This document shows positions 3,962 through 56,842 of a DNA stretch of 64,000 nt, one piece after another; position 1 is the stretch's first letter; each line of letters starts with the position of its first letter. The stretch is from Levilactobacillus mulengensis (GTDB taxonomy: Bacteria; Bacillota; Bacilli; Lactobacillales; Lactobacillaceae). A program made the translations under genes and the position numbers. Where the stretch lies: contig NZ_RHNW01000008.1 in the NCBI RefSeq assembly GCF_003946045.1, forward strand, positions 1 through 64,000, in the 5' to 3' direction. A model generated the notes under the pieces. It worked only from the letters and a program-made list of their open reading frames with translations. It searched no databases and was not told the DNA's origin.

Positions 3962-4162
3962 GACAGCTGGCCGCCTGCGGCTTCCAGGTACTACGCCTGC
4001 TGTGGGGCCGGTTTCCGCCTGAGGTGCGGGCTCCCACCTCAACTTTGAGCCCTGCTAGGATCATGCAGGTCTCAAAGGTTGTCCCGTGCTGTAAGGCCGA
4101 GAAAAATCGCTCGGTCTAACACCACCGACACAGCCGTCTCCGTACCTGGCTTCCTCCGGCTC
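3962..4162 (-). repeat. Dispersed element, subfamily A (copy A1)
   Basis: One of 18 related intergenic elements in this window; strand is the direction in which the shared core reads CTTTGAGAC..GCTCAAAG then GAAGACCG..AGGCT. It carries the A module (GTGTTAGACCGAG, loop CGATTTTT, CTCGGCC..ACAGCAC on the minus strand). The ends pair as CCAGGTA/TACCTGG. It lies upstream of the aminotransferase and on the same strand. Confidence 0.85.
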
Positions 4163-4170
4163 TGGTTGTG

Positions 4171-4212
4171 CGTTGCCTTTGACCGCGGCTTAGTGCCCGG
4201 TCAAAGGCAACG
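4171..4212. repeat. Perfect 15-bp inverted repeat
   Basis: The arms CGTTGCCTTTGACCG and CGGTCAAAGGCAACG flank a 12-nt loop. It lies between dispersed elements A1 and B1 and has no T tract on either side, so it is unlikely to be a simple terminator. It could be an operator or an outlying arm of the repeats. Confidence 0.7.
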
Positions 4213-4369
4213 GTGGTGGCGAACCGGCATCCAAAGTCGTTGGCCGTCAGTGTGGCGGTCCGGTTAAGCTGACTCTGTTGGCTTGGTGGGCGGCGACTGT
4301 GGAGCCTAACCTATTAGCTAATACTTCTAGTCCTGGCTCGGTTACGCCCCCCACCACACAACGTCGGAC

Positions 4370-4480
4370 AGTGAAAATTGGCTTAACCGTGGAATTCACA
4401 GATTCATTCGGGCAGTGAAACCACTCCCCCAGTTCAGCCGCTGACCACCGCCAAATGCCGGTCAGGAAGCCTGGCGTCTT
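4370..4480 (+). repeat. Decayed B-type element fragment
   Basis: The pieces GTGAAAATTGGCTTAACCGTGGAATTCAC and the following pairing resemble the start of a B element (GTGAAAATGGGCTCAGCCGTGGGA) but the core is not preserved. I treat it as a remnant and do not count it among the 18 copies. Confidence 0.4.
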
Positions 4481-4502
4481 TGCTGCCAACAGCGGCTAGC
4501 CT

Positions 4503-4676
4503 GCCGAGAGGGCGGTAAAAATGGGCTCAGCCGTAGGATTTACAGCGCGCTAGCGGTGTAAATGGTGACTTTGAGACTCGTCCTATGAGGCTCAAAGCAA
4601 GTCGGAAGACCGCTTCCCAGGCTTCCGGCGTCCTCCCCACCGCGTTCCGGCCCATTTTTACCGCCCGGTAAGGCCC
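4503..4676 (+). repeat. Dispersed element, subfamily B (copy B1)
   Basis: The termini are a perfect 17-bp inverted repeat, GGGCGGTAAAAATGGGC (4510-4526) and its complement (4650-4666). Inside are CAGCCGTAGGA, a variable hairpin (ATTTAC/GTAAAT), the core hairpin CTTTGAGAC..GCTCAAAG and the hairpin CGGAAG..CTTCCG around GACCG. It lies upstream of the LysR gene, on the same strand. Confidence 0.9.
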
Positions 4677-4879
4677 AGCTACCGCTACAGTTGCCAGCAA
4701 CGATAAGGCGCCTGGTTTCCGCCAACCTGCATTTTAAGAAGTCACCGGCCGAACCTGCTGGGGGTGGTTTCCTCTGACCACGCGTTTATGATAAGATACT
4801 GGTGACAGAAAAACCATTTCAACTATCCAGAAATAACGTGAATGTAATTCATCTTTACCAATCTCAGGAGGTGTCGTCG

Positions 4880-5788
4880 ATGTTACCGTTTGCCTATCGC
4901 GTCTTTCAAGCTATTGTTCAAGAACAAACTTTCTACCGAGCGGCGCAAACGCTGAACGTGACGCCTTCAGCCATCAGCCACTCCGTTAACCAGCTGGAAA
5001 AGGAGCTGGGCTTTCCGCTCTTCATCCGTAATCGAACCGGCGTGGAGCTCACCCCGGATGGCGAAAGCGTGCTGCCACTGATTCAGGGCGTCATCAACGC
5101 CGAGGACCGGCTCCAACAGGCCGCCGCCAACATTAACGGCATGAACGCCGGATCCGTGCGGCTGGGGGCCTTCTCCTCCGTCTGCATTTCCTGGCTGCCA
5201 CCGATCATTCGGCAGTTCAAACAGGATTTCCCCCAAATCGACATCAATTTAGAACAGGCCGGCTTCAGTGACATCGCGGCCGCCGTCAAAACCGGGCGCT
5301 TGGATTTAGGCCTGTCCGCCTTGCCGGTCGCGGAAAAATTAACCGTCCTGCCGCTGGTCAAGGACGAAATCTACTGCATCACGCCCAACGATTTCATCCC
5401 CGCCAACCGCACGACGGTCACGGCCGCCGACCTGGTCGACCAGAACTTCATTTTGCAGCGGGGCGACTACGACAAGGACACCAAGGCCGCGCTGGACCAC
5501 TACCAAATTCGGCCGAACGCGTTGCGGTTCTCCATCGACGACCAGTCCATCCTGGCGATGGTCGAGGCCGGCATGGGCATGGGCATTTTGCCCGAGCTGG
5601 CGCTGGAACGGGTCAGTGGCAACGTGAACGTCTACCCATTTGACCAGCGGTTCTACCGGACGATTTGCTTGGTGGTCAACTCTGAGCAGGCCAAGGCACC
5701 GTCGACGGCCAAGATGATTGCGGCAATCACGGCTTACGTCGCCCACAAATACCCAGACAAGGTCCTGCAACACCCACACGTGGGGTAA
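4880..5788 (+). CDS. LysR-family transcriptional regulator
   Basis: A 302-residue LysR-type activator/repressor. The N-terminal winged helix-turn-helix (about residues 1-60) reads FYRAAQTLNVTPSAISHSVNQLEKELG with the family's conserved SAIS recognition helix. The periplasmic-binding-like effector domain spans about 90-300 (VRLGAFSSVCISWLPPIIRQF; GRLDLGL; MVEAGMGMGILPE). The frame is open to 4802, but AGGAGGTG at 4866-4873 fixes the ATG at 4880. It is divergent from the aminotransferase, so by the usual LysR habit that gene may be its target, although 1 kb of repeats separates them. The effector is unknown. Confidence 0.88.
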   Translation: MLPFAYRVFQAIVQEQTFYRAAQTLNVTPSAISHSVNQLEKELGFPLFIRNRTGVELTPDGESVLPLIQGVINAEDRLQQAAANINGMNAGSVRLGAFSSVCISWLPPIIRQFKQDFPQIDINLEQAGFSDIAAAVKTGRLDLGLSALPVAEKLTVLPLVKDEIYCITPNDFIPANRTTVTAADLVDQNFILQRGDYDKDTKAALDHYQIRPNALRFSIDDQSILAMVEAGMGMGILPELALERVSGNVNVYPFDQRFYRTICLVVNSEQAKAPSTAKMIAAITAYVAHKYPDKVLQHPHVG

Positions 5789-5799
5789 ACTTCGCTTTT

Positions 5800-6115
5800 G
5801 CCTCCGGAAACGTGAAAATGAGACCGGAGCATGGTGGGCAAGACGGTGTTGTGCTGGCCGTTCCCGGCGGTGGGTTCAAGGTGCCCTGCTGTGGGGCCGG
5901 TTCCCGCCTGAGGTACAGGCTCCCACCTCAACTTTGGGCCCTGCCAGGATCATGCAGGTCTCAAAGGTTGTCCCGTGCTGTAAGGCCGAGAAAAATCGCT
6001 CGGTCTAACACCACCGACACAGCTGGGCACCTTGCCCCACCTCTGGTCACTGACACAAACACGGTCACTTTCCACTGCGAAACGGTCATTTTCACACTCC
6101 CTGCGGCTGACACTG
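5800..6115 (-). repeat. Dispersed element, subfamily A with long outer arms (copy A2)
   Basis: The longest copy. It has the A module plus outer arms GTGAAAATGA..CGG near 5812 and CGGTCATTTTCAC near 6082. The inner part is nearly identical to A1 over GTCCCGTGCTGTAAGGCCGAG and the following CGGTCTAACACCACCGACACAGC region. It fills the gap after the LysR gene. Confidence 0.88.
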
Positions 6116-6175
6116 GTTTAGCCCTATGGTGCGTGTCAATTGCTTGTTCTGTTCCAACTTAACTCTGATTAAACC

Positions 6176-6229
6176 AAATACCGCGGAAGTCCTTGGCCAT
6201 TTGTTTGGCTGGACTTCCGCGGTATTTTT
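6176..6229. terminator. Bidirectional terminator
   Basis: The arms AAATACCGCGGAAGTCC and GGACTTCCGCGGTATTT enclose an 18-nt loop with T runs on both strands. It ends the AAA ATPase gene on the minus strand and any read-through from the plus strand. Confidence 0.88.
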
Positions 6230-6293
6230 CTTGTCGTCTATTTTAAAATTTCATTTCATCTATGAGTAACCTTCATCTTAACTTCATCAGCAT

Positions 6294-7538
6294 TTAGAAG
6301 TGCTTGTCCGTTAAATGAGGGACGGCCCCATACCTCCCCAAGATATAGTCCTTCCCATAACTCGCATCGTTCCGTACCTTCTGATTGCCGTTGACCTTGA
6401 CTGAATCCAGTGAATACAGGTCCGACATCCCCGCCGGATTCTTATCCACGAACCAGACCTCGTCTCGGCGAAAATTGGTTTTATCTAACGTGAAGAGTTC
6501 CTGGGTGGTGAAAATTAATTGGGCGCCACGCGGGTTGATTTGCGCGTCATGAAATAGGATTAAGATGTAGCGCAACAGTAACGGGTGGAGCTTGGCATCC
6601 AGCTCATCCACGATGACCGTGCCGCCCTCATCCAACGTTTGTTTCAAATCAACGTACAGCCACAACATTTTGCGCGTCCCACTGGATTCCGCGCTGATTG
6701 GCGTCTGGAGAAGTTCCCCCGTCGTGGGATTGCGGTGATAGCTGACGACACGTTGTCGGGCTTCATTTTCATCGGCGAAGTCATCTTGCACGACACCTAA
6801 CTGGGCGATTCCCACATCGACCGCTTGGACAAACTGTTCAAATTTCTGTTTCTCTTGCGGATCAGTCAGCAGCGCAATCATTGGACTCAGTGATTGCCGT
6901 GAACGAAAGCGCGCGGTCTTGGTCACCTCATTCTGCGGATTCCCGTAGTCTACGATTCGTAAAGCTCGGAACCAATCGGCGACCTCCCGAATGATAGGGA
7001 TTTCTAACCGAGACAGTGCGGACAGCAGTAACGACTTCTTCGTGATCAGTTTGGCCAGCGTCTGAACCTCCGCCTGTTCCGTCAGGCTACCCACGATTCC
7101 CGTGTCAGTGCGGTCAAAGATTTCCAGATACTGCTCGCCCACTTTACTTTTATCCCGCTGATACAAGTATTCTTCTGTCACGGCTTGCTTGGTGGTACTA
7201 AATCCATACTGATAGATGTTCGTCCGCGTGGAAAATAAAACGCTGAACTCCGTCGGAACGCTGGGGTCCTCAAACCAGTAAGGCGTAACCTTCTTCAATG
7301 CATCCTCATCCGCAAACGAGGTCAGCACCACATCCGTCATGACACTTAGCGCGTGAATGACGTTGCTCTTGCCAGACGCGTTGGCGCCGTATAGGGCAGC
7401 CAGCTTTAACACCCGTTCGTGCAAAACGTCAGTCACTACATCCGTTGGGAGTTCCTTCAATGCTGAAGCAGTCAGGTCCAGCGTGACTTCCTGGCGAAAC
7501 GATTTAAAGTTTTTAAATGTAAACTGATGCAACATCAT
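6294..7538 (-). CDS. Stand-alone AAA ATPase (AAA_15/AAA_21, abortive-infection-like)
   Basis: A 414-residue SMC/ABC-like P-loop ATPase. Walker A is LYGANASGKSNVI (about residues 50-62) after FKNFKSFRQEV. An ABC-type signature region ISAESSGTRKM lies near 285, and Walker B with the catalytic glutamate is GTVIVDELDAKLHP near 310. This layout is that of the OLD/AbiL/RloC-like ATPases, often phage defence proteins, but the RloB- or nuclease-type partner normally encoded next door is absent. A terminator follows at once and the upstream region is noncoding. The start is one of GTG 7544, ATG 7538 or ATG 7535; AGAGG favours 7538/7535. The defence role is inference. Confidence 0.8.
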   Translation of the reverse strand: MMLHQFTFKNFKSFRQEVTLDLTASALKELPTDVVTDVLHERVLKLAALYGANASGKSNVIHALSVMTDVVLTSFADEDALKKVTPYWFEDPSVPTEFSVLFSTRTNIYQYGFSTTKQAVTEEYLYQRDKSKVGEQYLEIFDRTDTGIVGSLTEQAEVQTLAKLITKKSLLLSALSRLEIPIIREVADWFRALRIVDYGNPQNEVTKTARFRSRQSLSPMIALLTDPQEKQKFEQFVQAVDVGIAQLGVVQDDFADENEARQRVVSYHRNPTTGELLQTPISAESSGTRKMLWLYVDLKQTLDEGGTVIVDELDAKLHPLLLRYILILFHDAQINPRGAQLIFTTQELFTLDKTNFRRDEVWFVDKNPAGMSDLYSLDSVKVNGNQKVRNDASYGKDYILGRYGAVPHLTDKHF

Positions 7539-7775
7539 CCTCACCTCTTGGGTTAAAGATACCTGTTGTAACAGTTATTAGCAAGTAATTACGATATTTT
7601 CTCAAATATATAGAAATTACTGATTGATAAAAGAATTTCGTTATAAATCTAGAAATAAATCGCCATAACAAACCAACCTGAATTTTTCGCTACCCCACTA
7701 TTTGTTTAAAGCAATGCACTATTCAACGCAAAAAGAATTGCTTAACACAACTAGTATCCACCATGCTTATCGTGC

Positions 7776-7781
7776 TATAAT
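7776..7781 (+). promoter_or_regulatory. Extended -10 promoter element
   Basis: TGCTATAAT is a perfect extended -10 about 40 bp upstream of the secreted protein at 7823. I see no convincing -35. Confidence 0.55.
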
Positions 7782-7822
7782 GGCGAAGTAATTTCGACTA
7801 TACATAAATTGGAGGCACCACC

Positions 7823-8551: not shown

Positions 8552-8578
8552 CACTTATTTCCACTAAAATAACCAAAT

Positions 8579-12003: not shown

Positions 12004-12218
12004 TTTGGTCTGAGTTGGCTGGAGCCGGAGCCAGTTCAGGTTGGCCACCTGTGACAGTGGTGTTAGCCGGTGTCCTTCCGGCTTACAGCACGGGCCATGT
12101 TAGAAACTCGTGATCTTCGAGGTTCTAACATGAACTCGAAGACCGCCCTTTGGCTTCGAGTGGGCCCCATAGGTGGTCAACCTGAAACTGGCGGAGGCGG
12201 AAGCCAGCTCAGACCAAA
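12004..12218 (+). repeat. Dispersed element, subfamily A (copy A10)
   Basis: The outer arms start TTTGGTCTGAG (12004) and end CTCAGACCAAA (12218). The A-module hairpin is GTGTTAGCCGG, loop TGTCCTT, CCGGCTTACAGCAC. In the core hairpin the arms have become GTTAGAA/TTCTAAC, which is a complete change of sequence with pairing kept. Confidence 0.82.
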
Positions 12219-21682: not shown

Positions 21683-21727
21683 AAAACGGGTCACCGGCTC
21701 ACATCGAGGTGAACTGGTGGCCCGTCT
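21683..21727 (-). terminator. Expression-platform terminator of the TPP riboswitch
   Basis: On the minus strand ACGGGCCACC.GTTCACC and its pairing GGTGACCCGT form a hairpin followed by TTTTTATTT, just downstream of the aptamer and 165 bp before thiM. This fits transcription attenuation when TPP is bound. Confidence 0.82.
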
Positions 21728-21733
21728 GGGTAC

Positions 21734-21820
21734 CACGACACATTCCCTCCGCAAGTCTGAACTTGACAGGTTCCAAGGGATCGCGGTCACCCGCATCTCA
21801 GCCCAATCGTGGACACCCCT
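21734..21820 (-). ncRNA. TPP riboswitch (THI element)
   Basis: The minus strand shows the conserved GGGCTGAGATG(CG), CGATCCCTTGGAACCTG and GCGGAGGGA segments, closed by P1 CCACGA (21807-21812) / TCGTGG (21734-21739). It controls thiM-thiD-thiE. Confidence 0.95.
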
Positions 21821-21877
21821 AGTGTTCTAGTTATCTTAAGTATAACAGGTTTCGGTAACAGGGCAACGCCACTCGTA

Positions 21878-29627: not shown

Positions 29628-29903
29628 CAGCCGCAGGGATGGTGAAAATGAGCCAACTGGGTAAGTATCAGTGACCAGAGGCAGGCCAAGATTCGCAGCT
29701 GTGTCGATGGTCTTGACTGAGCGATTTTCTCAGTTTAGACCATGGGACGACCTTGGAGACTGTGAATTTCAGGCTCCAAGGCGAGACGGAAGACCGCTCC
29801 TCAGGCTGGAGTCGTTCCCCACAGCAGGGTATCTTGAGTCTGCCGGCGGGAACGACTTGCTTGCTCACCGTGACGCGGCTCATTTTCACCAGCCCGGAGG
29901 CAA
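29628..29903 (+). repeat. Dispersed element, subfamily A with full outer arms (copy A5)
   Basis: Outer arms CAGCCGCAGGGATGGTGAAAATGAGCC and GGCTCATTTTCACCAGCCCGGAGG are those of B elements, but the inside has the A module (ATGGTCTTGACTGAG, loop CGATTTT, CTCAGTTTAGACCAT) before the common core. This copy links the two subfamilies. It reads with the DUF368 gene downstream. Confidence 0.88.
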
Positions 29904-33394: not shown

Positions 33395-33596
33395 CGGCTG
33401 TTTCCCGCCTCCGGCCTCCAGGGATTCCACCTGCTGTGGGGCCCGGTTCCGGCCTGAGAAGCGGTCCGCCACCTCGCTTTGAAGCCTCGCTAAGACCCGC
33501 GAGTCTCCAAAGTCGTCCCGTGCTGTAAGGCCGGGAAAGTTCACCCGGTCTAACACCACCGACACAGCTGGCTCCATCCCTGGCTGCCTGCGGCTA
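33395..33596 (-). repeat. Dispersed element, subfamily A (copy A6)
   Basis: The A-module hairpin is GTGTTAGACCGGG, loop TGAACTTT, CCCGGCCTTACAGCAC. The core hairpin is CTTTGGAGAC/GCTTCAAAG-like. It lies upstream of the glpK promoter, on the same strand. Confidence 0.85.
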
Positions 33597-35620: not shown

Positions 35621-35805
35621 GTTAGCCGTGAGGGCGGCCCAAATCGACTCAGCCGTAGGAGTGCGCTAAACGGTGAACCTTGCCGTTTAGCGCACTGGCA
35701 TCTTTGAAACTCGCACTTTGAGGTTCAAAGTGAGTACGGAGACCGCTCTTTGGCTCCGTGCGTTCGCCTACCGCGTTCCGGTCGGTTTAGGCCGCCCGGT
35801 AAGGC
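35621..35805 (+). repeat. Dispersed element, subfamily B (copy B6)
   Basis: GTTAGCCGTGAGGGCGGCC to GGCCGCCCGGTAAGGC. The variable hairpin is the longest of all copies (AGTGCGCTAAACGG / CCGTTTAGCGCACT, 14 bp). The core hairpin shows the paired change CTTTGAAAC/GGTTCAAAG, then ACGGAG/CTCCGT. It ends 46 bp before the amidotransferase start and reads with it. Confidence 0.9.
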
Positions 35806-37717: not shown

Positions 37718-39574
37718 ATGACTAGGGGACTTAGCAAATTAATGACTGCCACCTTCACACTGATTTTATTAGGGGGCGTGGCCACACCAGCGGTGGCTTA
37801 CGCGGATTCTTCGACAGATACTGTCACAGCTACGACTAAAGCTGACGACAATAAGGTCACCTACCACGTAAGTGTCGTTGAAACACCTTATGCCTTGATT
37901 TCTTCGACTAGCGGTATCGAAAAAACTCCGATTCTCACCGGTTGGCCCGATACTTTAACAACTGATCAGCTTACAGATGACGACTACATCCAAAAACTGA
38001 TGACCGAAAATCCAGAAAACTCCGCTGACACTGTCGACAATTACCGGGGAGTAATGACTCAATATTCCGCAGACGACATCACTGTAAATCCTAAAGAATC
38101 TTTCCTGCAATACCAGTTAAACTCTGTAAATATCTCAATGTCCGCAAATGAATATGTTAAAATGATGCTTTTGCCTTCGTATGTGACGCTGTGGAATGCT
38201 TACGCCTATGCTAATTTAGAAAATGGCGTCATGAATCGTGACGATCTCATCGCCTACTACGAGAAAAACGTCGGACCGGAACTGATTGCGTTAGGGGCAA
38301 CTCAGGAAATCGTCCAGACCTACAATCCCGGTTCATGGAGTGAAAAGCATTTCAATGAAGAATTTAAACTCATGTATCAGCAGGATTACGACAACGTTAA
38401 ATCAGCCCCAATTCTAAATAAACTATCTGATGAGCAATTCATGAAGATTGACCTGACCGGAACAATTAATGAACAAATGAAACTCTGGTTAGTTCCAATT
38501 TCTAATTACTATACTAAGCTTCCCGATGGTTCATACAAATTAAGTGGACTGATAACAGGTAACTTCCAATTTCTAAACTTTGGGACACCTGACCCCGTCA
38601 TCCCCGACCCAACGCCGACCCCAACGCCAGCCAAGAGCCAACCGGTGACGGTGACCTACGTCGATGACCAAGGCAAGACGCTAGCACCCAGCAAGACGTT
38701 GACCGGCGACCTGGATGCCACCTACCAGAGTGACGCCCTGAACATCGCCGGCTACAAGCTGAGCAAGACGCCCGCTAACGCCACTGGCAAATTTACCAGC
38801 GACACGCAGACCGTGACCTACGTATACACCAAGCAAGGCACGCTGCAAAGCGGTTCGGCGGCCGACACCATCGAGACCACCACGTTGGCTCCTAAGGGCG
38901 CCGTCGTTTATGCCACCAAGAAGGTCGGCCTCTACAAGACGGCCACCTTCTCCAAGAAGAACCTGAAGCGTTGGTACGTGAAGAAGTCTCGGACGAACCG
39001 GCCGATGTTTGTGGTCACCGGCTACGCGACCTCTAAGAACGGCGTCAAACGGTACCGTGTCAAGGATGTCAACCATCACAGCAAGACGGCTGGCAAGACC
39101 GGTTACCTCACGACCAACAACGCCTACACCACTACCGTTTACTACGCGACTAAGCACAAGACCGTGACGGTGATCAATCCAACTGGGGTCAACAGTTACG
39201 CCAAGAAGACGTTAACTGGCAAAAAGACCCACTACCGTCAAGGACAGACGCTGACCGTTAAAAAAGTGGTTACCAACAAGTTAACGACCCGTTTCGTTCT
39301 CAAGAATGGCCGTTACCTGACCGCTAACAAGAAACTGGTTCAGGCGGGCAAAGTCACGATGCCACGGCAGATCAAGACGACCCACGCCATCAACCGTTAC
39401 AGCAACGTTAAACTCACCAAGCAGAATAGACACCTCAAGAAGGGCACCAAATTAGCCGTCCGCGGCTGGGCTTACTCAAATACCAACAATTTCAGTAAGC
39501 ACGACACGCTGCGGTACCACGTGGCTGGCGGGTACATCACCGCTAACCAGCACCTGGTGAAAACCATTCGTTAA
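37718..39574 (+). CDS. MucBP/DUF5776-like surface protein 1
   Basis: A 618-residue secreted protein with AAAGGGAG upstream. The signal peptide is MTRGLSKLMTATFTLILLGGVATPAVAYA. A unique N-terminal domain (about 30-290) is followed by a Pro/Thr linker (PDPTPTPTPAKS), a MucBP domain (about 305-365; VTVTYVDDQGKTLAPSKTL), a DUF5776-like module (about 385-530; KKVGLYKTATFSKKNLKRWYVKKSRTNRPMFVVTGY) and a further basic repeat to the end. There is no LPxTG. The basic C-terminus probably binds wall polymers. It is a tandem paralogue of the next gene: N-domains diverged, MucBP and C-terminal modules closely alike. Confidence 0.87.
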   Translation: MTRGLSKLMTATFTLILLGGVATPAVAYADSSTDTVTATTKADDNKVTYHVSVVETPYALISSTSGIEKTPILTGWPDTLTTDQLTDDDYIQKLMTENPENSADTVDNYRGVMTQYSADDITVNPKESFLQYQLNSVNISMSANEYVKMMLLPSYVTLWNAYAYANLENGVMNRDDLIAYYEKNVGPELIALGATQEIVQTYNPGSWSEKHFNEEFKLMYQQDYDNVKSAPILNKLSDEQFMKIDLTGTINEQMKLWLVPISNYYTKLPDGSYKLSGLITGNFQFLNFGTPDPVIPDPTPTPTPAKSQPVTVTYVDDQGKTLAPSKTLTGDLDATYQSDALNIAGYKLSKTPANATGKFTSDTQTVTYVYTKQGTLQSGSAADTIETTTLAPKGAVVYATKKVGLYKTATFSKKNLKRWYVKKSRTNRPMFVVTGYATSKNGVKRYRVKDVNHHSKTAGKTGYLTTNNAYTTTVYYATKHKTVTVINPTGVNSYAKKTLTGKKTHYRQGQTLTVKKVVTNKLTTRFVLKNGRYLTANKKLVQAGKVTMPRQIKTTHAINRYSNVKLTKQNRHLKKGTKLAVRGWAYSNTNNFSKHDTLRYHVAGGYITANQHLVKTIR

Positions 39575-39834: not shown

Positions 39835-41499
39835 ATGACTAGGGGCTTTAGACAACTCGTGACCGTGAGTCTCGCCATGATTTTATTTGGCGGGATTCTC
39901 AGTCCCAGCGTCATTCACGCTGAAGCCGCCACCGCCGTCTCGACCGCTACGACACCCACTGCCAAACAAACCTATACCATTAGCTCCGTCGAACTGCCCT
40001 ACACGAAACTGATCATGAACCAGCAAGTGACCAAGGACTACTGGTTCCAAAAGGATATGACCGGTGATACTGATGGTGGGCCTCATGCCCTCACTGTAGG
40101 TCAATTGGAAAATACCACCTACATGGGCAGTTTCGTCAAATACAACAATAATGACGACATGGCCGCCAGCTTACCTTATATTTATCAAGGACTCTTTGCT
40201 AATCCAACCATTGCCCAAGACACGACTGTCGGTGAATTTTTGTACGATCTGAATACCGACGACTTTTCCAGCGCCGCCGACTATGTCGAAAGCAGCCGTC
40301 TCAGTACTTTCATCACCACCTGGTGGTTGAAAAACCTGGCACAATATCAAATCGACCAAAGTAATTACGCACAGATGCAGTCGGACTATCATAGTTTCTT
40401 GCGTGACTATCTGATTACTACCGGCGCGGACGAGAACATTATTAGCCAATATGACAACATGTTCGCTACAAAGGAAAACTTTGAAGAACCAAATATTCAG
40501 AAAATGCTCTATACGCAGCTATTCCCCGGTCTCGTCAAGGCGAACTATCTAGGCCAATACACCAACGAACAACTGGCCCAGTTGAATCCAGAAACTTCTG
40601 CGGCAGAAACAGAACGGGCCTTGAACCAACCGATGACGGACTTCCTATTGCCACAGGAAAATGACACCTACCAGCTCAGCGGCCTGCTGATGACGATGGA
40701 AATCAAAATCTTTAGTTCCGACAACACCCTGTTGCCACCAACCACGACACCAGAGCCGAACCCCAATCCGCAGCCAACGCCTGACCCAGACCCCGTAACC
40801 AGCCAACCCGTGACAGTCCGTTACGTCGATACCGCTGGCAAGGCAATCGCCCCAGTCAAAACGCTGACGGGTGACCTGGGAACGAGCTACCAGAGTACCG
40901 CGCTGAAAATTGCCAACTACACCTTAAAGACGACGCCAACCAACGCCACCGGTAAATTTACCAGCCAGGCGCAGACCGTCACCTACGTGTACCAGGCTAT
41001 CCTGACGAGTGGTGCTGGCGCCGCAGTCGTGGCTCCCAAAGGCACAGTGGTTTACGCGATGAAGAAGATTGGCCTGTATCGGTCAGCCACCTTCACGAAA
41101 AAGGCCCGTAAACAGTGGTACGCGAAAAAGTCCCGGCAAAACCGGCCGATGTTTGTCGTCACCGGCTACGCCAAGTCCAAGAACGGCGTCAAACGGTACC
41201 GCGTCAAGGACGTCAACCACCACAGTAAGACGGCTGGCAAGACCGGGTATATCACGGCCAATAGTCGCTACACCGCCCGTGTTTACTATGCCAAGAAGCA
41301 GCCTAAGATCACCGTGATCAACCAAGCTGGCGTTAACGCCTACAGTAAAAAGTCTCTAACGGGCAAACGCCACCACTATCGTCAAGGCCAGGTCCTCAAG
41401 GTGAAGAAAATCGTGACCCACAATCTGACGACCCGGTTCGTCCTCACTAATGGCACCTACGTCACCGCCAACAAGAAGCTGGTTCAGACGGTTAAATAG
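39835..41499 (+). CDS. MucBP/DUF5776-like surface protein 2
   Basis: A 554-residue secreted paralogue of the preceding gene, with AAAGGAG upstream. The signal peptide is MTRGFRQLVTVSLAMILFGGILSPSVIHAEA. The N-domain (about 30-300) shares only scattered motifs (SSVELPYTKL against SVVETPYALI). After a Pro/Asn linker come MucBP (about 322-383) and the DUF5776-like end (about 395-554), almost identical to copy 1 over KSKNGVKRYRVKDVNHHSK. The extra basic repeat of copy 1 is missing. It has its own promoter and no terminator before the next element. Confidence 0.87.
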   Translation: MTRGFRQLVTVSLAMILFGGILSPSVIHAEAATAVSTATTPTAKQTYTISSVELPYTKLIMNQQVTKDYWFQKDMTGDTDGGPHALTVGQLENTTYMGSFVKYNNNDDMAASLPYIYQGLFANPTIAQDTTVGEFLYDLNTDDFSSAADYVESSRLSTFITTWWLKNLAQYQIDQSNYAQMQSDYHSFLRDYLITTGADENIISQYDNMFATKENFEEPNIQKMLYTQLFPGLVKANYLGQYTNEQLAQLNPETSAAETERALNQPMTDFLLPQENDTYQLSGLLMTMEIKIFSSDNTLLPPTTTPEPNPNPQPTPDPDPVTSQPVTVRYVDTAGKAIAPVKTLTGDLGTSYQSTALKIANYTLKTTPTNATGKFTSQAQTVTYVYQAILTSGAGAAVVAPKGTVVYAMKKIGLYRSATFTKKARKQWYAKKSRQNRPMFVVTGYAKSKNGVKRYRVKDVNHHSKTAGKTGYITANSRYTARVYYAKKQPKITVINQAGVNAYSKKSLTGKRHHYRQGQVLKVKKIVTHNLTTRFVLTNGTYVTANKKLVQTVK

Positions 41500-41685: not shown

Positions 41686-41902
41686 TGTGTTTAACCACCT
41701 GACCAACATCTGTTGCGGTAGTGACGTCGATTATCTACTTTCCATGTAAATCAAAAACGGCAGTCCACCACTTGGGTGAGCTGCTGCTTTTAGATTACGA
41801 TGCTTATGATTAATTAATTGAGAAGAACATGGCCACACATTTATCCAACGAACCAGATAAACCAGTTAGCCAACCACTCACCAACTTACGGGTTAAATCT
41901 GT

Positions 41903-42082
41903 GTCAGCCGCAGGGCTGGTGAAAATGGGCTCAGCCGTGGGAGTTACCTTAGCGGGTTCCCCGCTTAGGTAACTGCTATCTTTGAGACGTGACTTTCGGC
42001 TCAAAGTAAGTCTGAAGACCGCTTCTCAGGCTTCAGACGTGCGCCCACAGCGTCACGGCCCATTTTCACCAACCCGGAGGCG
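41903..42082 (+). repeat. Dispersed element, subfamily B (copy B8)
   Basis: GTCAGCCGCAGGGCTGGTGA to TCACCAACCCGGAGGC. The variable hairpin is AGTTACCTTAGCGG / CCGCTTAGGTAACT (14 bp), then CTTTGAGAC/GGCTCAAAG and GTCTGAAG/CTTCAGAC (8 bp). It lies just beyond the end of the sedolisin gene, 217 bp from B7 in opposite orientation. Confidence 0.9.
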
Positions 42083-42106
42083 ATGATAAAAACTAGTTTA
42101 ACCCAG

Positions 42107-43951
42107 TTATTTGAAAACCTTGGCTAACTGGTCAAAGTCCAGCGTCCCCAAGCCGGCCGCCTGGTTATAAGTCTTCCCCGGCTGCCCAACGTAGAACAAG
42201 TTCCCGTTGTTCGTAGCCGAATCCAATTTGGTAAACGGTGACTGACTGGTCTGGGCCAACGCGTAAAGCTGTGGGTTCCACAGCCCCATGCGCTTGCTGC
42301 GACCGCTATTGATAACGGCCGCCATCGCCGCAAACTGAGGCGCCACGACGCTGGTCCCACCGGTCAGTTCCCAGCCATCCGCGCTGGTGTACTCATCATA
42401 CCCCGTCAACGGATCAGCGTTAGCCACGACGTCTGGGAAGTTCCGCCCACTGGCCGTCCCGGTGATCAGGCTCGGATTCTCTCGGGGCAACCCACTCGCC
42501 GTCAGGTATTGCCGCGCATTATAGGTGTTCACGCCGGACACGCCCTTCTGATACTGCGGGGTTGCGTACAGTTCGGAAATGCCGCCACCACTGCCGCTCT
42601 GAAGCGTGTCCATCAAATCAGAATTCTTTTTGAAAAAGCCCTTATCTTGGAAGTAGGCGTCAAAGAGTTCGTCGCCGCCCCAGGTCCGTTCCTTGGGGAT
42701 GTCGACCTTGATGCCGTTGGCCAGCGTGCCAGAGACTGGCAACGTGGTCCCACCGGTGGCCGTGACCCACGGATTGTTGGCAGGGAAGTTGGCGTAAATG
42801 CCTTCGTTGGTGTTGCCCCGGCTATCGAGCTCTTCACCATAGGCCCCGGAGTCCCCGCTTGCCGCAAAGGTCGAGATACCTTGAATTGCGCCTTGCGCCA
42901 GCAACGTGTTCATGATGCTGCCATAAAGTGGTGTTAACAGGTGCTCCCGGTTCAGACTCTGGAGCACGCCTTCGGACAGACCCCAGCTCAGCGATAACGA
43001 ACTGGCTTGATTTTCACCAAAGGCTGTGGCAAAGGCATTGAGCCAACCCACGTCACTCAACGACGCCGTGTAGACGCGAATCTTGGCTTTCGGTGCGATG
43101 GCCCCGGCCTGTTCAACGTCTAGCGAGGTTTCTTCGTTGCCCGGATCGACGTTGCCCCAGATATTCATGCCGCCAGTAGTCTTCACACTGATGCGGCTGG
43201 CGGACGACGCAACGCCCTCCTCGGACCAGAAATGAGTGATATCATTCTTGTTGACCTTGCTAAAGCTAATGATGCCAATCGTTTGGCCCTTGCCGTCATT
43301 GCCCTTGGCCAGGCTCGTCGCATTGTATTGGCTCAAGAAATTCTGCGGCGCCCCATCACTGGTCGGCCCGTCGGAACTGGTACTGGACGCATCCGCTAGA
43401 CTACGCATCTTCGCCAGGTTCGTGATGCCGACGACCGCCTTGATAGGCTTAGCCACGTTGCTGGGCAACTTGGGCGACTTCTTAGAAAATTGAATCTTCT
43501 TGCCGTGGTAGGTGGCCGTCTTCAGGTTCGTCGCGAAGGTCTTGTTCACCGCCGCCGTGCTCCCCTTGATCTGCATGATCAGGCCATCGTTAAAGGTCGT
43601 CACCTTAAACTTGCGTGACTTGAAATACTTGGCCAAACGCTTCGTGGTGGTCGTGGACTGCCCAAATTTTTGCCGAAACTGCTTGGGCGTCAAATAAGAC
43701 TTGAACTGTTTATTTCCCGACGTATTCACGGCATAGGCGGTCTTGGTCAGCTGCGCGCTATTCCGCGTGTTTAAGACCAGGTCCAACGTCACGGTTTTAC
43801 TGCCAGAAACGGGTTTCACATTTTTTAAATTGGTTAATTCACTCTCACGGTACGGTGTCGCCAGCGTGCTGGTGCTAGCCGCGGTCGCTGTGACGCCACC
43901 GAAACTGCCCAGCCCCACAATCAAGCCGGCCACAATCAGACGAATCCTCAT
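42107..43951 (-). CDS. Secreted S53 family serine-carboxyl peptidase (sedolisin)
   Basis: A 614-residue exported acid-active peptidase with a pro-kumamolisin activation domain. A signal peptide (MRIRLIVAGLIVGLGSFGGVTATAA) is followed by the prodomain (about 35-190; LTPKQFRQKFGQ). The S53 domain (about 210-614) shows the catalytic Glu/Asp pair in NEETSLDVEQ, the oxyanion Asp in FAASGDSGAYG, and the nucleophile in GGTSVVAPQFAA, with a Ca2+-site-like end. GGAGGGG before the ATG at 43951 sets the start. It probably degrades protein outside the cell at low pH. It stands alone, with no transporter nearby. Confidence 0.9.
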   Translation of the reverse strand: MRIRLIVAGLIVGLGSFGGVTATAASTSTLATPYRESELTNLKNVKPVSGSKTVTLDLVLNTRNSAQLTKTAYAVNTSGNKQFKSYLTPKQFRQKFGQSTTTTKRLAKYFKSRKFKVTTFNDGLIMQIKGSTAAVNKTFATNLKTATYHGKKIQFSKKSPKLPSNVAKPIKAVVGITNLAKMRSLADASSTSSDGPTSDGAPQNFLSQYNATSLAKGNDGKGQTIGIISFSKVNKNDITHFWSEEGVASSASRISVKTTGGMNIWGNVDPGNEETSLDVEQAGAIAPKAKIRVYTASLSDVGWLNAFATAFGENQASSLSLSWGLSEGVLQSLNREHLLTPLYGSIMNTLLAQGAIQGISTFAASGDSGAYGEELDSRGNTNEGIYANFPANNPWVTATGGTTLPVSGTLANGIKVDIPKERTWGGDELFDAYFQDKGFFKKNSDLMDTLQSGSGGGISELYATPQYQKGVSGVNTYNARQYLTASGLPRENPSLITGTASGRNFPDVVANADPLTGYDEYTSADGWELTGGTSVVAPQFAAMAAVINSGRSKRMGLWNPQLYALAQTSQSPFTKLDSATNNGNLFYVGQPGKTYNQAAGLGTLDFDQLAKVFK

Positions 43952-44183
43952 GAGCATCCCCTCCATTTATGCTTTATTATACCCCGCCACTCCGCGAAAA
44001 GGTGGCGCAAATCACTAGTTGATGATGACATAATTAAATGGTCGAACCAAGGTCCCGCTAAATGGTGGGTGGCCGTTACCGGCCGTAGTGGTCTGACCGC
44101 TTACGTTTGTGACCACTTGAAATGGTTTCGTGGGTTAAGGGCGGGGCAATTTCGTGATTTTGACGGACTTTTGGTGGGTTAAC

Positions 44184-51625: not shown

Positions 51626-51650
51626 CCCCACGAACAAGGAGTGACTGCAC

Positions 51651-52637: not shown

Positions 52638-52644
52638 CCAAACT

Positions 52645-52692: not shown

Positions 52693-52700
52693 CTTATTAT

Positions 52701-53468: not shown

Positions 53469-53562
53469 AAAATTCTCCCCTTCTCTTGCCCCTACAAACT
53501 CAGTCTATCGCTACCTAACACAGGTTTCCCCGAAACTTCTGTGCCAGTGGCAACTAAGCTAA

Positions 53563-54282
53563 TTACTTCGTTTCTGCGGTCAAAACGGCCGTCTTATCTG
53601 GCTTGATTCCGAAGTAGGTTGGAATCAATTCGGCTAAGGCTGCCATGGCCTCATTGGCCCGGGCGGCCTGGTCGGCGTTGACCGATTCCATCACGACAAT
53701 CCCGTTGGTAGTGTCGTCCGTCAACATGGTCCGTTGGGCTTCCCGCCAGTTCAGGCTCCGGCATACGGCGCCCTCATCATCGTAGTAAATCATTTCGCCA
53801 GCTCGGGCCGGGTCATCCTCTTCTGCACCCAATGGGAAGAAGGATTCGCCGCCTTGCGCCGTGCCTAAATGCAGGTCACCGGCAATTTTATCTCGGTCCT
53901 CAATGCCGACTGGCACGCCATAACGCAGTGAAATACTGTTATACACGTCAACCAGTGGCTCAATTGGCGTGAACTCGTGGCCCTGACTAGCCCGCTTCAA
54001 CAGGGCTTCAATCGAAGAACGCGCCCCTTTACGCTTGGGAAATTGTTGGTACGCCTCCCGCCATTCGGCCACCACCGGGTTATTCCGGAAGGGGTCAACC
54101 TTGGTAAATTTGTCGGATTCTGCCGTCGCCGTGCGCAACAGTTCTTGGCGTTCGGCCAGATTATCATCCGTATCATGGTTATCAAAGCCCGTCAGCCACA
54201 TCAAATTGATCTGTGCCTCCGGATACGTTTGCCAAAAACTATCGTCAATCATGACATCCTTCATCGTCATTGTTTTATTCAT
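53563..54282 (-). CDS. B3/B4 tRNA-binding domain protein
   Basis: A 239-residue stand-alone B3/B4 domain protein, related to the editing region of the PheRS beta subunit. Typical segments are NPVVAEWREAYQQFPKRKGARSSIEALLKRA (about 68-98), PLVDVYNSISLRYGVPVGIEDRDKI and YYDDEGAVCRSLNWREAQRTMLTDDTTNGIVVMES. It may edit mischarged tRNA, as shown for some family members; here this is inferred. Start ATG 54282 or 54270; GAAAGG abuts the first, so the second is possible. Confidence 0.8.
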   Translation of the reverse strand: MNKTMTMKDVMIDDSFWQTYPEAQINLMWLTGFDNHDTDDNLAERQELLRTATAESDKFTKVDPFRNNPVVAEWREAYQQFPKRKGARSSIEALLKRASQGHEFTPIEPLVDVYNSISLRYGVPVGIEDRDKIAGDLHLGTAQGGESFFPLGAEEDDPARAGEMIYYDDEGAVCRSLNWREAQRTMLTDDTTNGIVVMESVNADQAARANEAMAALAELIPTYFGIKPDKTAVLTAETK

Positions 54283-54356
54283 CCTTTCGGTTAATCGTTT
54301 GTTAAATCTCTTACTCTCTCATCATATGCTACTGGCAAAAATTTGCAACGATAGTT

Positions 54357-54393
54357 AAAAACGGCCCATCCTATTTTGCGGATGAGCCGTTCT
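54357..54393 (-). terminator. Terminator of the mntH1-usp1 operon
   Basis: On the minus strand AACGGCTCATCC and GGATGGGCCGTT with TTTTAAC after it. Confidence 0.8.
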
Positions 54394-54425
54394 TGCTTTT
54401 TAGCAAATCTTTTTCTAATTGTGCT

Positions 54426-54857
54426 TTACCGAATCACCAGCACCGAGACCGGCGCATACTTAGCCATGTACGCGGCCTGGCTACCAAAGTGGCGGCTGAC
54501 CCCCTTCTTGGCAATCGACCCAACAATAAGAATGTCCGGCTTAACCTGGGGAATGATCTCCTTCACGATGGTCTCACCCGGCTCGCCCTCCGCAATCATG
54601 ATGCGGACAGCGGCAACGCCCGCGTCCTCTGCCTGCTGCTGGTACTCACGGACGTGCCGTTTTAAATCGTCATATTGCCCGTGGATAAAATCCGTATCCA
54701 GCGCTTGGTAAACGTTCATAGTTTCCTTTTCCAATACCGACGCGATCACTAGCTCGGCTCCGTCTCGTTTTGCCTGATGAATCGCGTACCTAAAGGCTAA
54801 CAAGGCATCCGCCGAATCGTCAACACCGACTAAAATTCGTTTAAACGTGGTTGGCAT
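54426..54857 (-). CDS. Universal stress protein 1
   Basis: A 143-residue UspA-family protein: KRILVGVDDSADALLAFRYAIHQAKRDGAELVIASVLE at the start and the ATP-binding signature ILIVGSIAKKGVSRHFGSQAAYMAKYAPVSVLVIR at the end (GxxGxxxx form GSIAKKGVSRHFGS). It begins 12 bp after mntH1 and is cotranscribed. It is about 80% identical to usp2 by eye. The link between usp and the metal importer is conserved in both copies. Confidence 0.9.
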   Translation of the reverse strand: MPTTFKRILVGVDDSADALLAFRYAIHQAKRDGAELVIASVLEKETMNVYQALDTDFIHGQYDDLKRHVREYQQQAEDAGVAAVRIMIAEGEPGETIVKEIIPQVKPDILIVGSIAKKGVSRHFGSQAAYMAKYAPVSVLVIR

Positions 54858-54869
54858 GCACTCATCCCC

Positions 54870-56432
54870 CTATTTTTCCTTGGCCGCGATTGATGCGGCC
54901 AGGCGCTTGTTGCCAAAATGTAATTCCACAATGGTCCACGCCAACAAGCCCAGCACGGCCGCAATCAACGCGTAGGCAATGCCATTGGCCAGGGCTAACG
55001 TGCCACCTGTGACGTTACTGCCGAAGAAGGCCTGAACTTGCCCCGGCATGCCTTCCAGATTCAACCCGGTCAAGGCAATGACGGAGAACCAGCCTAAGAT
55101 CTTGAGCCACCAGGAGTTCTTGAAACGCTCGCCCATTTCCAATTTGCTATCGGTCATCATCAAGAGGGGCAGCATGGAAAATGGCAGGGCAAACGCCAGA
55201 AAGACTTGCGAATTGTTCATTAAATCATTCAGTGCTTCGTGTTCCGCAATCGCACTCTTGCCGCTGGTCAACATGACACAAATCAAGACAGGAATCACTG
55301 ACAGCAACCGGGTTACCAGCCGCCGTAGCCACAGGGGCATCCGCATGTGCACGAAACCCTCCATAATAACTTGCCCGGATAGCGTCCCGGTAATCGTGGA
55401 GTTTTGCCCGGAAGCCAGTAAGGCCACGGCGAACAGCGTAGATAAAACACCGGTCCGTGCAACACTGCTCAGGACGCCATTGCTCATGGTCGTCGTATCT
55501 GACAGCGCGTGGAACAGGCCGAAGAAGGAAGGATCCTTGACGGCGCCGGTCTTGAAGACGGCGACCCCCATGATCAGCAGTAGCGCGTTGACGAAGAAGG
55601 CAAAGGTCAGTTGAATGTTCGAATCTAGTCCAGCAAATTTAACCGTCCGTGCCACATCTTCCTCATCGTTGTGGTCGATCGACCGCGTCTGGGAAATAGC
55701 CGAGTGCAGGTACAAATTGTGGGGCATGACGGTGGCCCCGATGATGCCGAGCGCCCCGTTTAATGGCGTCATCCCGGCAACCGCGTGGGCCGTCGAGAAC
55801 GTTTCGCCAGTCGGAATCAGGCCCTTGAAGACGCCACCCCAATCGGGATTGGACAAAGCAACCTGATAGACGAAGACGAAGAGAATCACCATGATCAAGC
55901 AAACCACGATGGCTTCAATTTTTCGAAAACCAACCTTGGTCAGCAATAATAGCAACAGCACATCAAAGACCGTGATGAAGACGGCGATGACCAACGGAAT
56001 GTGGAACAGCAGGTACAACGCAATCGCTGCTCCAATAACTTCCGCAATATCCGTCGCCATAATGGCCAATTCGGTTAATAACCATAAAACTACCCCTAGC
56101 GATTTACTGGTCCGCGCGCGAATGGCTTGGGCCAGATCCATCTGACTCACGATACCAAGTTTAGCCGCCATGTATTGTAACAGCATCGCAATCAAACTTG
56201 ACATCAAGATGACAGACATCAGCAGGTACTGGAAATTTTGACCACCGGTAATTGACGTCGACCAGTTCCCGGGATCCATGTACCCCACGGCAACCAACGC
56301 ACCAGGCCCTGAGTACGCAAACAAGGTTTTCCAGAAACCAATGTCCTTGGGCACCTTGACCGTCCCATTGATTTCCTCCAGTGAGCGGCCGTTCGCGTAT
56401 TCAATCAGCTTGTGCTTCTTTTCTTCTGGCAT
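54870..56432 (-). CDS. mntH: NRAMP-family Mn2+/H+ symporter 1
   Basis: A 520-residue, 11-12-span divalent-metal importer. The metal site DPGNW in VAVGYMDPGNWSTSITGGQ (about residue 45) and the transport-motif stretch GATVMPHNLYLHSAISQTR (about 225) are intact, so Mn2+ (possibly Fe2+) uptake is expected. AGGAGGAG before ATG 56432 gives MPEEKKHKLIEYANGRSLEEING; the frame runs to 56453. An operator-like box lies 86 bp upstream. It is a paralogue of mntH2, strongest in the membrane core, divergent in the last 60 residues. Confidence 0.93.
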   Translation of the reverse strand: MPEEKKHKLIEYANGRSLEEINGTVKVPKDIGFWKTLFAYSGPGALVAVGYMDPGNWSTSITGGQNFQYLLMSVILMSSLIAMLLQYMAAKLGIVSQMDLAQAIRARTSKSLGVVLWLLTELAIMATDIAEVIGAAIALYLLFHIPLVIAVFITVFDVLLLLLLTKVGFRKIEAIVVCLIMVILFVFVYQVALSNPDWGGVFKGLIPTGETFSTAHAVAGMTPLNGALGIIGATVMPHNLYLHSAISQTRSIDHNDEEDVARTVKFAGLDSNIQLTFAFFVNALLLIMGVAVFKTGAVKDPSFFGLFHALSDTTTMSNGVLSSVARTGVLSTLFAVALLASGQNSTITGTLSGQVIMEGFVHMRMPLWLRRLVTRLLSVIPVLICVMLTSGKSAIAEHEALNDLMNNSQVFLAFALPFSMLPLLMMTDSKLEMGERFKNSWWLKILGWFSVIALTGLNLEGMPGQVQAFFGSNVTGGTLALANGIAYALIAAVLGLLAWTIVELHFGNKRLAASIAAKEK

Positions 56433-56517
56433 GCTCTCACTCCTCCTGGTCAACTTTTCTGACCAACGCTAGTGTACGGCAATGCCCAGCTGCCGGCGCT
56501 GCTAAATGGTGAGTCGT

Positions 56518-56545
56518 TAAATTTAGGGGGGTGACGGTTAATTTT
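56518..56545. promoter_or_regulatory. MntR/DtxR-type operator candidate before mntH1
   Basis: TTTAGGGGGGTGACGGTTAA, a slightly longer form of the TTTAGGG.GAC..TTAA box found twice near the regulator gene. Confidence 0.5.
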
Positions 56546-56553
56546 AAGGAATC

Positions 56554-56592
56554 AAAAAAGCCGCTAGACCACGTTTTAGTGGGCTAACGGCT
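56554..56592 (-). terminator. Terminator beyond element A9
   Basis: On the minus strand GCCGTTAGCCCAC and GTGGTCTAGCGGC with TTTTTT after it. It would end transcripts arriving from usp2. Confidence 0.82.
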
Positions 56593-56640
56593 TAGTTCGT
56601 ACGCTTTTACTATCTTACATCGATGTTGCATCGCCTGATC

Positions 56641-56842
56641 ACTTTCGTTCCCGACGGCAGGCTCAAGCTCCCCTGCTATGGGGAACGGCTCCAGCCTGGG
56701 AAACGGTCTTCCGCCTCGCCTGAAAGCCTGGAAAACCACCAGTCTCCCAGGTCGTCCCGTGCTCTAAACTGAGAAAATCACTCAGTTAAGACCACCGACA
56801 TAGCTGGTCCGCTTGACCTGCCTCTGGTCACTGACACTGATC
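56641..56842 (-). repeat. Dispersed element, subfamily A (copy A9)
   Basis: The A-module hairpin is GGTCTTAACTGAG, loop TGATTTT, CTCAGTTTAGAGC. The core second hairpin GGAAGACCG..CCAGGCT is present. It lies after usp2 and before a terminator, so it is in the 3' untranslated region. Confidence 0.83.

What the first reader, a model, noticed from the sequence alone, without database searches (positions are those of the whole stretch)
3962..56842. A family of 18 modular, structured intergenic elements fills about 6% of the window
Seen directly: copies at 3962, 4503, 5800, 12004, 15297, 18181, 20411, 22738, 23411, 26878, 29628, 33395, 34441, 35282, 35621, 41510, 41903 and 56641. All share, in one direction, a core hairpin (CTTTGAGAC..GCTCAAAG) and a second hairpin (GAAGACCG..AGGCTTC) and then CCCCACAGCG/CCCCACAGCAG. 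Many also share outer inverted repeats (GGTGAAAATGGGC/GCCCATTTTCACC). All are intergenic and never inside a gene that I can support. I know of no named family like this in lactobacilli. The closest analogy is the BOX/RUP/SPRITE elements of pneumococcus. They may be nonautonomous mobile elements, structured RNAs, or both.
Basis: partly seen in the sequence, partly recalled or inferred. Interest (0 to 1): 0.88.

Follow-up and report, generated by a model that had tools for sequence, protein, structure and literature searches.

The report
Structured RNA-like repeats of Levilactobacillus
Hundreds of copies of a folded, non-coding DNA repeat sit between the genes of a food lactic acid bacterium, keep an RNA-like shape while their letters change, and mostly point the same end at the nearest gene, which hints at an unusual way of copying and may be new.

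Summary
All 18 places carry one repeat family; 17 keep recognisable forms of both hairpins, 18181 is internally deleted. The organism is a Levilactobacillus near L. lanxiensis. A 464-kb sample of its genome holds 71 detected copies (about 475 extrapolated). A covariance model finds the family in 33 of 35 genus genomes and remote relatives in other Lactobacillaceae. No Rfam match reaches a curated threshold.

The copies share a three-hairpin, four-way-junction fold with strong covariation (44 of 56 pairs). Changes between orthologous copies favour G-U over A-C on one strand (30:8, one comparison per site): one strand seems selected as a folded single strand, most simply RNA. The outermost arms show no such bias (52:60).

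New: the 3' end faces the nearest gene edge whatever the gene's direction (72 of 82 ends within 100 nt); convergent pairs are absent (0 of 43); a minority of copies carry an inverted copy of the gene-side flank on their 5' side; cores are exchanged in place between species.

Best reading: non-autonomous repeats encoding a structured RNA, spreading by polar copying with fold-back. The mechanism is inferred; no enzyme was found.

The parts
3962..4170 (-). element, B-like/other type; HP2 at 4043-4077
   Evidence: not found by R1 at E<=0.01; end points approximate
4502..4673 (+). type A element
   Evidence: R1 164.0 bits
5859..6049 (-). type B element
   Evidence: end anchors; in A6; not found by R1 at E<=0.01
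12023..12198 (+). other-type element
   Evidence: R1 65.2 bits
15300..15467 (+). type A element
   Evidence: R1 161.8 bits
18195..18293 (-). type A element with internal deletion (both hairpins lost)
   Evidence: R1 68.1 bits; ortholog whole in L045
20430..20599 (-). type A element; one outer arm swapped in L044
   Evidence: R1 158.4 bits
22759..22940 (-). other-type element
   Evidence: R1 55.1 bits
23412..23582 (+). type A element; arms and HP3 differ compensatorily in L044/L045
   Evidence: R1 171.1 bits
26910..27097 (-). type B element
29672..29854 (+). type B element inside A-like outer arms
33407..33595 (-). other-type element; type A at the same site in L044 and L045
   Evidence: R1 35.0 bits
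34454..34631 (-). type B element; type A at the same site in L044 and L045
35330..35507 (-). type B element inside A-like outer arms
35624..35804 (+). type A element; only outermost arms left in L044
   Evidence: R1 175.8 bits
41512..41680 (-). type A element, 13 nt beyond the stop of gene 39835-41499
   Evidence: R1 166.6 bits
41906..42081 (+). type A element of the young subfamily (unit about 41890-42104); type B core at the same site in L. wangkuiensis
   Evidence: R1 180.0 bits
56646..56830 (-). type B element
41753..41791 (.). hairpin of terminator type between the two elements; a similar hairpin lies 22 nt before the gene's stop in the element-free site of L. cerevisiae
   Evidence: homology inferred by reading
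41861..41897 (+). 5' arm: inverted copy of the gene-side flank of the element at 41906
   Evidence: score 33; 1 of 500 shuffles reaches it, the best being 35
42097..42132 (-). original of that copy, reaching into the coding end of gene 42107-43966

Best explanation
A family of non-coding, non-autonomous interspersed repeats. Each copy carries a 170-190-nt core that one strand folds into an outer stem, an inner stem and three hairpins round a four-way junction (SHOWN as a covarying structure). That strand is under selection to fold as a single strand, most simply as RNA (SHOWN as a strand asymmetry; RNA itself INFERRED). New copies arose by a polar process that joins the element's 3' end to the existing gene-side flank and then folds back at the outer stem, so that part of the gene-side flank is copied in inverted orientation on to the 5' side (inverted copies SHOWN for a minority of copies; fold-back INFERRED). 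This lengthens the 5' side, so that 3' ends lie near gene edges and convergent pairs do not occur (geometry SHOWN; cause INFERRED). Once in place, copies persist for long and their cores are exchanged for cores of other copies without moving (SHOWN in 8 of 26 comparisons; the recombination process is INFERRED). The copying could be DNA template switching at the hairpin or target-primed reverse transcription of the RNA; the present data do not decide.
For: Structure: 31 of 56 pairs (type A, 21 copies) and 27 of 52 (type B, 25 copies) with compensatory changes; in 79 distinct type-A rows 97.7% of cells pair, 44 of 56 pairs have double changes, 0 of 500 shuffles reach any measure, slides of 1-3 columns fall to 34-51% (alignment fitted to the model). 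Single strand: G-U 116 against A-C 28 over all copies. One-sided transitions between orthologous copies: 42 against 10 in 16 comparisons of 12 sites; with one comparison per site 30 against 8 or 25 against 8. Outermost arms outside the model: 52 against 60. Polarity: within 100 nt of a gene edge the 3' end is the near one in 40 of 43 (own sample) and 32 of 39 (other species), at starts and stops; adjacent pairs -+ 31, ++ 9, -- 3, +- 0. Inverted flank copies: 28-90 nt out, 10 of 64 own pairs exceed the 99th percentile of swapped pairs (0.6 expected), same-orientation control 3 of 64 above the 95th. Site 41906 against L. cerevisiae. Exchange.
Against: Of 29 comparisons of C1 copies with two species at about 94% identity, 25 have a detected counterpart; short alleles mostly keep element parts, one (g12 at C1 201.2 kb) shows none and is ambiguous. 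Where a copy was gained or lost (C1 100267, 274696-275128) it is bounded by direct repeats of about 75 bp of 5' flank plus arm, which fits tandem duplication or unequal exchange as well. No enzyme: RVT_1 is absent from the own genome and present in 10 of 34 genus genomes; Y1_Tnp is absent from G012, which has 271 exact hairpins. Inverted copies beyond the arms are a minority, and weak in the other species (2 of 66 above the 99th percentile). 14 of 67 single copies have the 5' end nearer. No promoter-like excess on the sense side of the 5' flank, so transcription is not shown. 25 of 29 kept double changes between orthologs come from one site, window 23412. Gene edges come from ORFs called after masking the elements.
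Confidence: 0.5

Rival explanations
1. Ordinary MITE: non-autonomous DNA transposon derivative mobilised in trans by an IS of the genus; the folding is a by-product of terminal inverted repeats, and polarity reflects a transposase preference.
For: Dispersed, intergenic, inverted outer arms, type B inside type A arms; 5 Y1_Tnp genes in the own genome; two gained or lost copies bounded by direct repeats of about 75 bp.
Against: Outer arms vary in letters while complementarity is kept; no direct target duplication seen at the one element-free site; Y1_Tnp does not follow copy number, and the two Y1_Tnp genes in the 400-kb sample lie 12.8 and 8.7 kb from the nearest element; internal hairpins covary and show a one-strand bias. 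Other transposase families were not searched.
Confidence: 0.17
2. Host-useful RNA elements: each copy is a small RNA or an untranslated-region element that controls or insulates the neighbouring gene, kept by selection at its site.
For: Selection on folding goes on after insertion: between orthologs one-sided changes of pairs are half of what the unpaired rate predicts (85 against 167) and favour G-U. Sites persist between species.
Against: No orientation bias to transcription: tandem-sense 25, tandem-anti 20, 22 and 20. Starts and stops are both used. Cores are swapped between types at one site. No promoter signal. Two of 35 genus genomes gave no R1 match.
Confidence: 0.15
3. DNA palindromes kept perfect by template switching during replication (quasipalindrome correction); the covariation is mutational and needs no function of the fold.
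For: Coupled multi-base changes of both arms between near relatives (L047 and L048; window 23412); over all copies 826 cells with double changes against 116 G-U and 28 A-C. Arm homogenisation by template switching is described in PMC8604942 (abstract, seen in the listing).
Against: Does not predict the G-U over A-C excess of one strand in the core, absent from the outermost arms, nor conserved unpaired bases and the inner loop that is kept in other genera.
Confidence: 0.13

Closest known systems
BOX elements of Streptococcus pneumoniae (with RUP and SPRITE; PMC3049150, passages read)
   Same: Small interspersed intergenic repeats, modular, many copies, predicted RNA folds, inserted into one another, old insertions with little present activity.
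   Different: Other modules and fold, as far as the passages tell; here a four-way junction with three hairpins closed by covarying outer stems, exchange of cores inside kept arms, 3' end towards gene edges and no convergent pairs (polarity of BOX was not in the passages that I read).
ERIC/RU and other stem-loop families (PMC2267715, passages; RU-1/RU-2 from the abstract start of PMC2759123)
   Same: 100-200-bp intergenic repeats; ERIC is reported there to fold as RNA.
   Different: Not compared by sequence; here multibranched, with strand-specific selection tested; 0 to 279 exact hairpin copies per genome in the genus.
REP/BIME elements with RAYT transposases (recalled)
   Same: Abundant extragenic palindromes.
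   Different: REP units are short single hairpins (recalled); here about 175-215 bp; Y1_Tnp genes do not follow copy number.
Eukaryotic SINEs (recalled; analogy only)
   Same: Short non-coding units with a structured RNA strand, many copies, polarity of the 3' end.
   Different: No RVT_1 gene in the own genome, no direct target duplication seen at the one element-free site, prokaryote.

Membership tests
MITE | terminal inverted repeats | tested here: inconclusive
   Inverted outer arms exist, but letters differ between copies while complementarity is kept (44 of 70 own pairs above the 95th percentile of swapped pairs)
MITE | direct target site duplication on insertion | tested here: inconclusive
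   None at the one element-free site (window 41906 against L. cerevisiae), an inverted copy instead; but two gained or lost copies in C1 are bounded by direct repeats of about 75 bp that include an element arm
MITE | AT-rich | tested here: not met
   Type-A copies 50-64% G+C; genome samples 51-52%
MITE | cognate IS with the same ends in the genome | tested here: inconclusive
   Only Y1_Tnp was searched as transposase; no link
BOX/RUP/SPRITE | the sequence modules boxA/boxB/boxC, RUP or SPRITE | not tested
   No models of these were used; resemblance is of kind only
REP/BIME with RAYT | short REP hairpins linked to a RAYT (Y1_Tnp) gene | tested here: not met
   Element has three hairpins and about 175 nt; G012 and G030 have 271 and 111 exact hairpins and no Y1_Tnp match
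Retroelement (SINE-like) | structured RNA strand | tested here: inconclusive
   Covariation and one-strand bias show a folded single strand; that it is RNA rather than ssDNA is inferred
Retroelement (SINE-like) | reverse transcriptase source | tested here: not met
   RVT_1: 0 in G000, 10 of 34 genus genomes positive; past supply not excluded
Retroelement (SINE-like) | 3'-first insertion | tested here: inconclusive
   Polarity fits but other causes fit too
Known RNA family (Rfam 15) | match to a curated covariance model at its gathering score | tested here: not met
   (window); weaker searches, one sub-threshold match touching an element end (Ocean-VII, 17.2 against 53.5 bits)
Cis-regulatory leader/riboswitch | sense orientation upstream of genes | tested here: not met
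   tandem-sense 25 against tandem-anti 20; 22 against 20

The most novel reading that the evidence does not exclude
A bacterial counterpart of SINEs: a non-autonomous element whose structured RNA is copied into DNA from its 3' end at a nicked gene-edge target, with the second strand self-primed by the snapped-back outer stem. That would leave the intact target at the 3' end and its inverted copy at the 5' end, explain the polarity, the absence of convergent pairs and the strand-specific selection together, and the same cDNA could replace cores of resident copies.
Probability: 0.12. Interest if true: 0.95.

Novelty: new variant of a known kind. Interest (0 to 1): 0.78.

Why it matters
A covarying, strand-selected fold in hundreds of copies, 2.7% of a bacterial genome sample even without its outer arms, has no Rfam match at a curated score. 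Its polarity towards gene edges regardless of transcription, the missing convergent pairs, the inverted flank copies and the in-place exchange of cores are not features that I know (recalled, not searched exhaustively) from other bacterial repeats, and they make the old question of how such repeats spread directly testable in harmless food bacteria.

Tried and rejected
Composite transposon (two elements as ends of one unit): the 14 spacers between -+ pairs of the own sample share only one 22-nt match and the mates are no more alike than other copies. Own promoter in the 5' flank: no sense excess, 5.41 against 5.36, p=0.26, n=144, with a simple recalled consensus. Leader or terminator element: no orientation bias. 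Reverse transcriptase or Y1 transposase correlation: none seen. Plasmid or phage carriage: no match of window 41880-42110 in either collection (records near the own genome may be left out). Literature: 8 paper searches; of those aimed at lactobacilli the listed rows (1, 10, 3, 10 and 8; only part of the 46, 19 and 1,090 papers found) show no paper that by title or abstract start describes this family. PMC3049150 and PMC2267715 were seen in passages, all others only as listing rows. Recent simple transposition between sister species: not shown for the sampled sites.

Results and rows to know: 14 of 67 singles and 10 of 82 near ends oppose the polarity. Contexts were scored for 69 of 71 and 75 of 83 copies, those with genes on both sides. 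Searches left out the copy at 3962 and any copy below the thresholds. One search showed 20 ortholog pairs and totalled 18, leaving out the two with exchanged cores; 25 of its 29 kept double changes come from site 23412. One search used 16 pairs of 12 sites; one search repeats it with one pair per site. In one search one of the six foreign copies flagged as missing in C1 (g12 118730) is a mapping artefact. Searches scored at most 47 and 13 candidates per genome, so their counts are lower bounds.
Full report
What is there. The window belongs to a 3.11-Mb genome of 36 contigs whose RlmD protein is 99% identical to that of Levilactobacillus lanxiensis and 98% to that of L. wangkuiensis (93.5 and 94.1% nucleotide identity over chained matches). 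The hairpin CTTTGAGAC-N2-30-GCTCAAAG occurs 271 times exactly in this genome, 0 times in the reversed control. Among 58 genomes searched, 30 of 35 of the genus have it, with 1 to 279 exact matches, and 3 of 23 from other genera with one match each. A covariance model R1 from 21 type-A copies finds the family in 33 of 35 genus genomes and in none of the 23 others at E<=1e-6 (at most 47 candidates scored per genome). In an order-wide draw of 198 genomes it rings in the own genome and 3 others of the same family, from two other genera (13 candidates per genome), and in named loci of Secundilactobacillus kimchicus, S. oryzae, S. odoratitofui and S. similis (the weakest at E=0.0012). Of the four relatives shown as alignments, three (L165, L166, L083) lack the third hairpin; a GAGAC..GGCUC hairpin (in L166 partly) and an inner loop with CAG on one side and CGUUCC on the other are kept in those three (read from the alignments). 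In 464 kb of the own genome (window plus C1:1-400000) I count 71 copies, 2.69% of the bases without outer arms; extrapolated, about 475 per genome.

The fold. Type A: outer stem (GGTGAAAATGGGC type, letters variable), inner stem GTGGG/CCCAC, hairpin 1 (variable letters), hairpin 2 (CTTTGAGAC..GGCTCAAAG), hairpin 3 (GAAGACCG..AGGCTTC). Type B has the same topology with other letters and another outer stem; B is in places nested in A-like arms. Type A: 31 of 56 pairs with compensatory change in 21 copies; in 79 distinct rows 97.7% of cells pair, 44 of 56 pairs have double changes, no shuffle of 500 reaches any measure, and sliding the partner by one to three columns drops pairing to 34-51% (the alignment is fitted to the model). 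Type B: 27 of 52 pairs in 25 copies.

Which strand. In pairs whose majority is Watson-Crick, G-U outnumbers A-C 116 to 28 over 79 rows (28 columns against 9, p=0.0026). A cleaner test uses orthologous copies at one site: one-sided transitions give G-U 42 times and A-C 10 times (16 comparisons of 12 sites, not independent); with one comparison per site it is 30 to 8 (p=0.0005) or 25 to 8 (p=0.005), by the choice of comparison, and 6 sites lean to G-U against 0 or 1 to A-C. The outermost arms outside the model, which are complementary in many copies, show 52 and 60. So the core seems selected in place as a folded single strand, the one that reads CTTTGAGAC, and the outermost arms do not. RNA is the simplest single strand; a strand-specific ssDNA is not excluded. 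One-sided changes of pairs between orthologs are half of what the unpaired rate predicts (85 against 167); kept double changes (29 against 8.5) come almost all, 25 of 29, from site 23412.

Polarity. Copies are not oriented by transcription (tandem-sense 25, tandem-anti 20, divergent 13, convergent 11 in the own sample, 69 of 71 copies; 22, 20, 27, 6 in other species, 75 of 83 copies). But the 3' end faces the nearest gene edge, at starts and stops: among ends within 100 nt of a gene, 40 of 43 in the own sample and 32 of 39 in the other species (28 loci searched, 23 with copies) are 3' ends. Single copies: 27 of 32 and 26 of 35. Adjacent copies in one intergenic region read -+ 31 times, ++ 9, -- 3 and +- never. 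Genes are ORFs of at least 90 codons called after masking.

Inverted flank copies. The flank on the 5' side is often an inverted copy of the flank on the 3' side: next to the core (0-30 nt) 44 of 70 own pairs exceed the 95th percentile of swapped pairs, and 28-90 nt out 10 of 64 exceed the 99th, while the same-orientation control gives 3 of 64 above the 95th. In the other species it is weaker (18 of 81 above the 95th, and 2 of 66 above the 99th). At window 41512 the 5' arm matches the coding end of gene 39835-41499, and at 41906 that of gene 42107-43966 (1 of 500 shuffles reaches each score). For 41906 L. cerevisiae (L139) has no element: a similar terminator-like hairpin stands 22 nt before the gene's stop; in the window the hairpin at 41753-41791 is followed by about 98 nt, then the element unit, then the stop. 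R1 finds nothing in L139, though by eye an arm remnant lies at the other site, next to gene 1. I read the gene end as the original and the 5' arm as the copy; loss in L. cerevisiae without remnant is the alternative.

Persistence and exchange. Of 29 comparisons of C1 copies with two species, 25 have a detected counterpart at the orthologous place. The unmatched copies of either side were read in alignments: short alleles mostly keep element ends or arms; g12 at C1 201.2 kb keeps none and may be empty; at 226.9 kb C1 and g21 keep only a few bases of the 3' arm. At C1 100267 and 274696-275128 one species has one copy more, bounded by direct repeats of about 75 bp of 5' flank plus arm, which looks like duplication or unequal exchange. 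In 8 of 26 scored comparisons the other species' copy is closer to a paralog of the own sample than to its ortholog although the flanks agree (some by small margins), with breakpoints at the ends of the core in the examples read. The window's 33407 (other type) and 34454 (type B) face type A in both sisters; 41906 is type A here and type B inside the same arms in L. wangkuiensis. Near relatives L047 and L048 differ in a block of both arms at once.

Interpretation. I commit to non-autonomous repeats that encode a structured RNA and spread by a polar, fold-back copying process, with later exchange of cores (0.5). Target-primed reverse transcription from the RNA's 3' end with a self-primed second strand would explain polarity, inverted copies and strand selection together, but the own genome has no RVT_1 match, so I give it 0.12. 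DNA template switching at the hairpin explains inverted copies and coupled arm changes but not the strand bias. Host function at each site is not excluded by the in-place selection but is hard to square with the missing relation to transcription.

Against known kinds. No element reaches an Rfam gathering score (weaker searches, with one sub-threshold Ocean-VII match touching the end of the copy at 29672). It works like BOX and similar interspersed repeats and is of that kind; of the MITE criteria AT-richness is not met, direct duplication is inconclusive, and no cognate IS was found in the one transposase family searched. I found no paper on it among the rows listed by 8 searches of the held library, which does not prove that none exists.

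Noticed in passing
window 21726-21830 (-): TPP riboswitch above Rfam's gathering score, 62.7 bits.
   Followed up: no
window 37718-39574 and 39835-41499: Two neighbouring genes with an internalin_J-like stretch far below the curated cut-off; perhaps surface proteins.
   Followed up: no
G000:C1:42643, C1:109602, C3:73244, C23:35650, C34:97085 (L029-L033): Five Y1_Tnp genes with frames of 140-146 codons, the size of IS200-type transposases (recalled); the two in the sample are not near any element.
   Followed up: partly
C1 100267-100443 and 274696-275128: A type B copy stands next to a type A copy, and about 75 bp of 5' flank plus 5' arm is directly repeated before each; the sister species has one copy less.
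   Followed up: partly
L045 12942-13287 and 14908-15337: Window 28051-28477 matches twice in L. wangkuiensis, about 2 kb apart: a local duplication or insertion.
   Followed up: no
G022, G031 (whole genomes), L096: Two genomes of the genus gave no R1 match although most carry many copies; the L. huananensis locus L096 has none either: a natural test of loss or late arrival.
   Followed up: no
L159-L162: Reverse transcriptase genes (348-349-codon frames) in some genus genomes; no RVT_1 match in the own genome.
   Followed up: no
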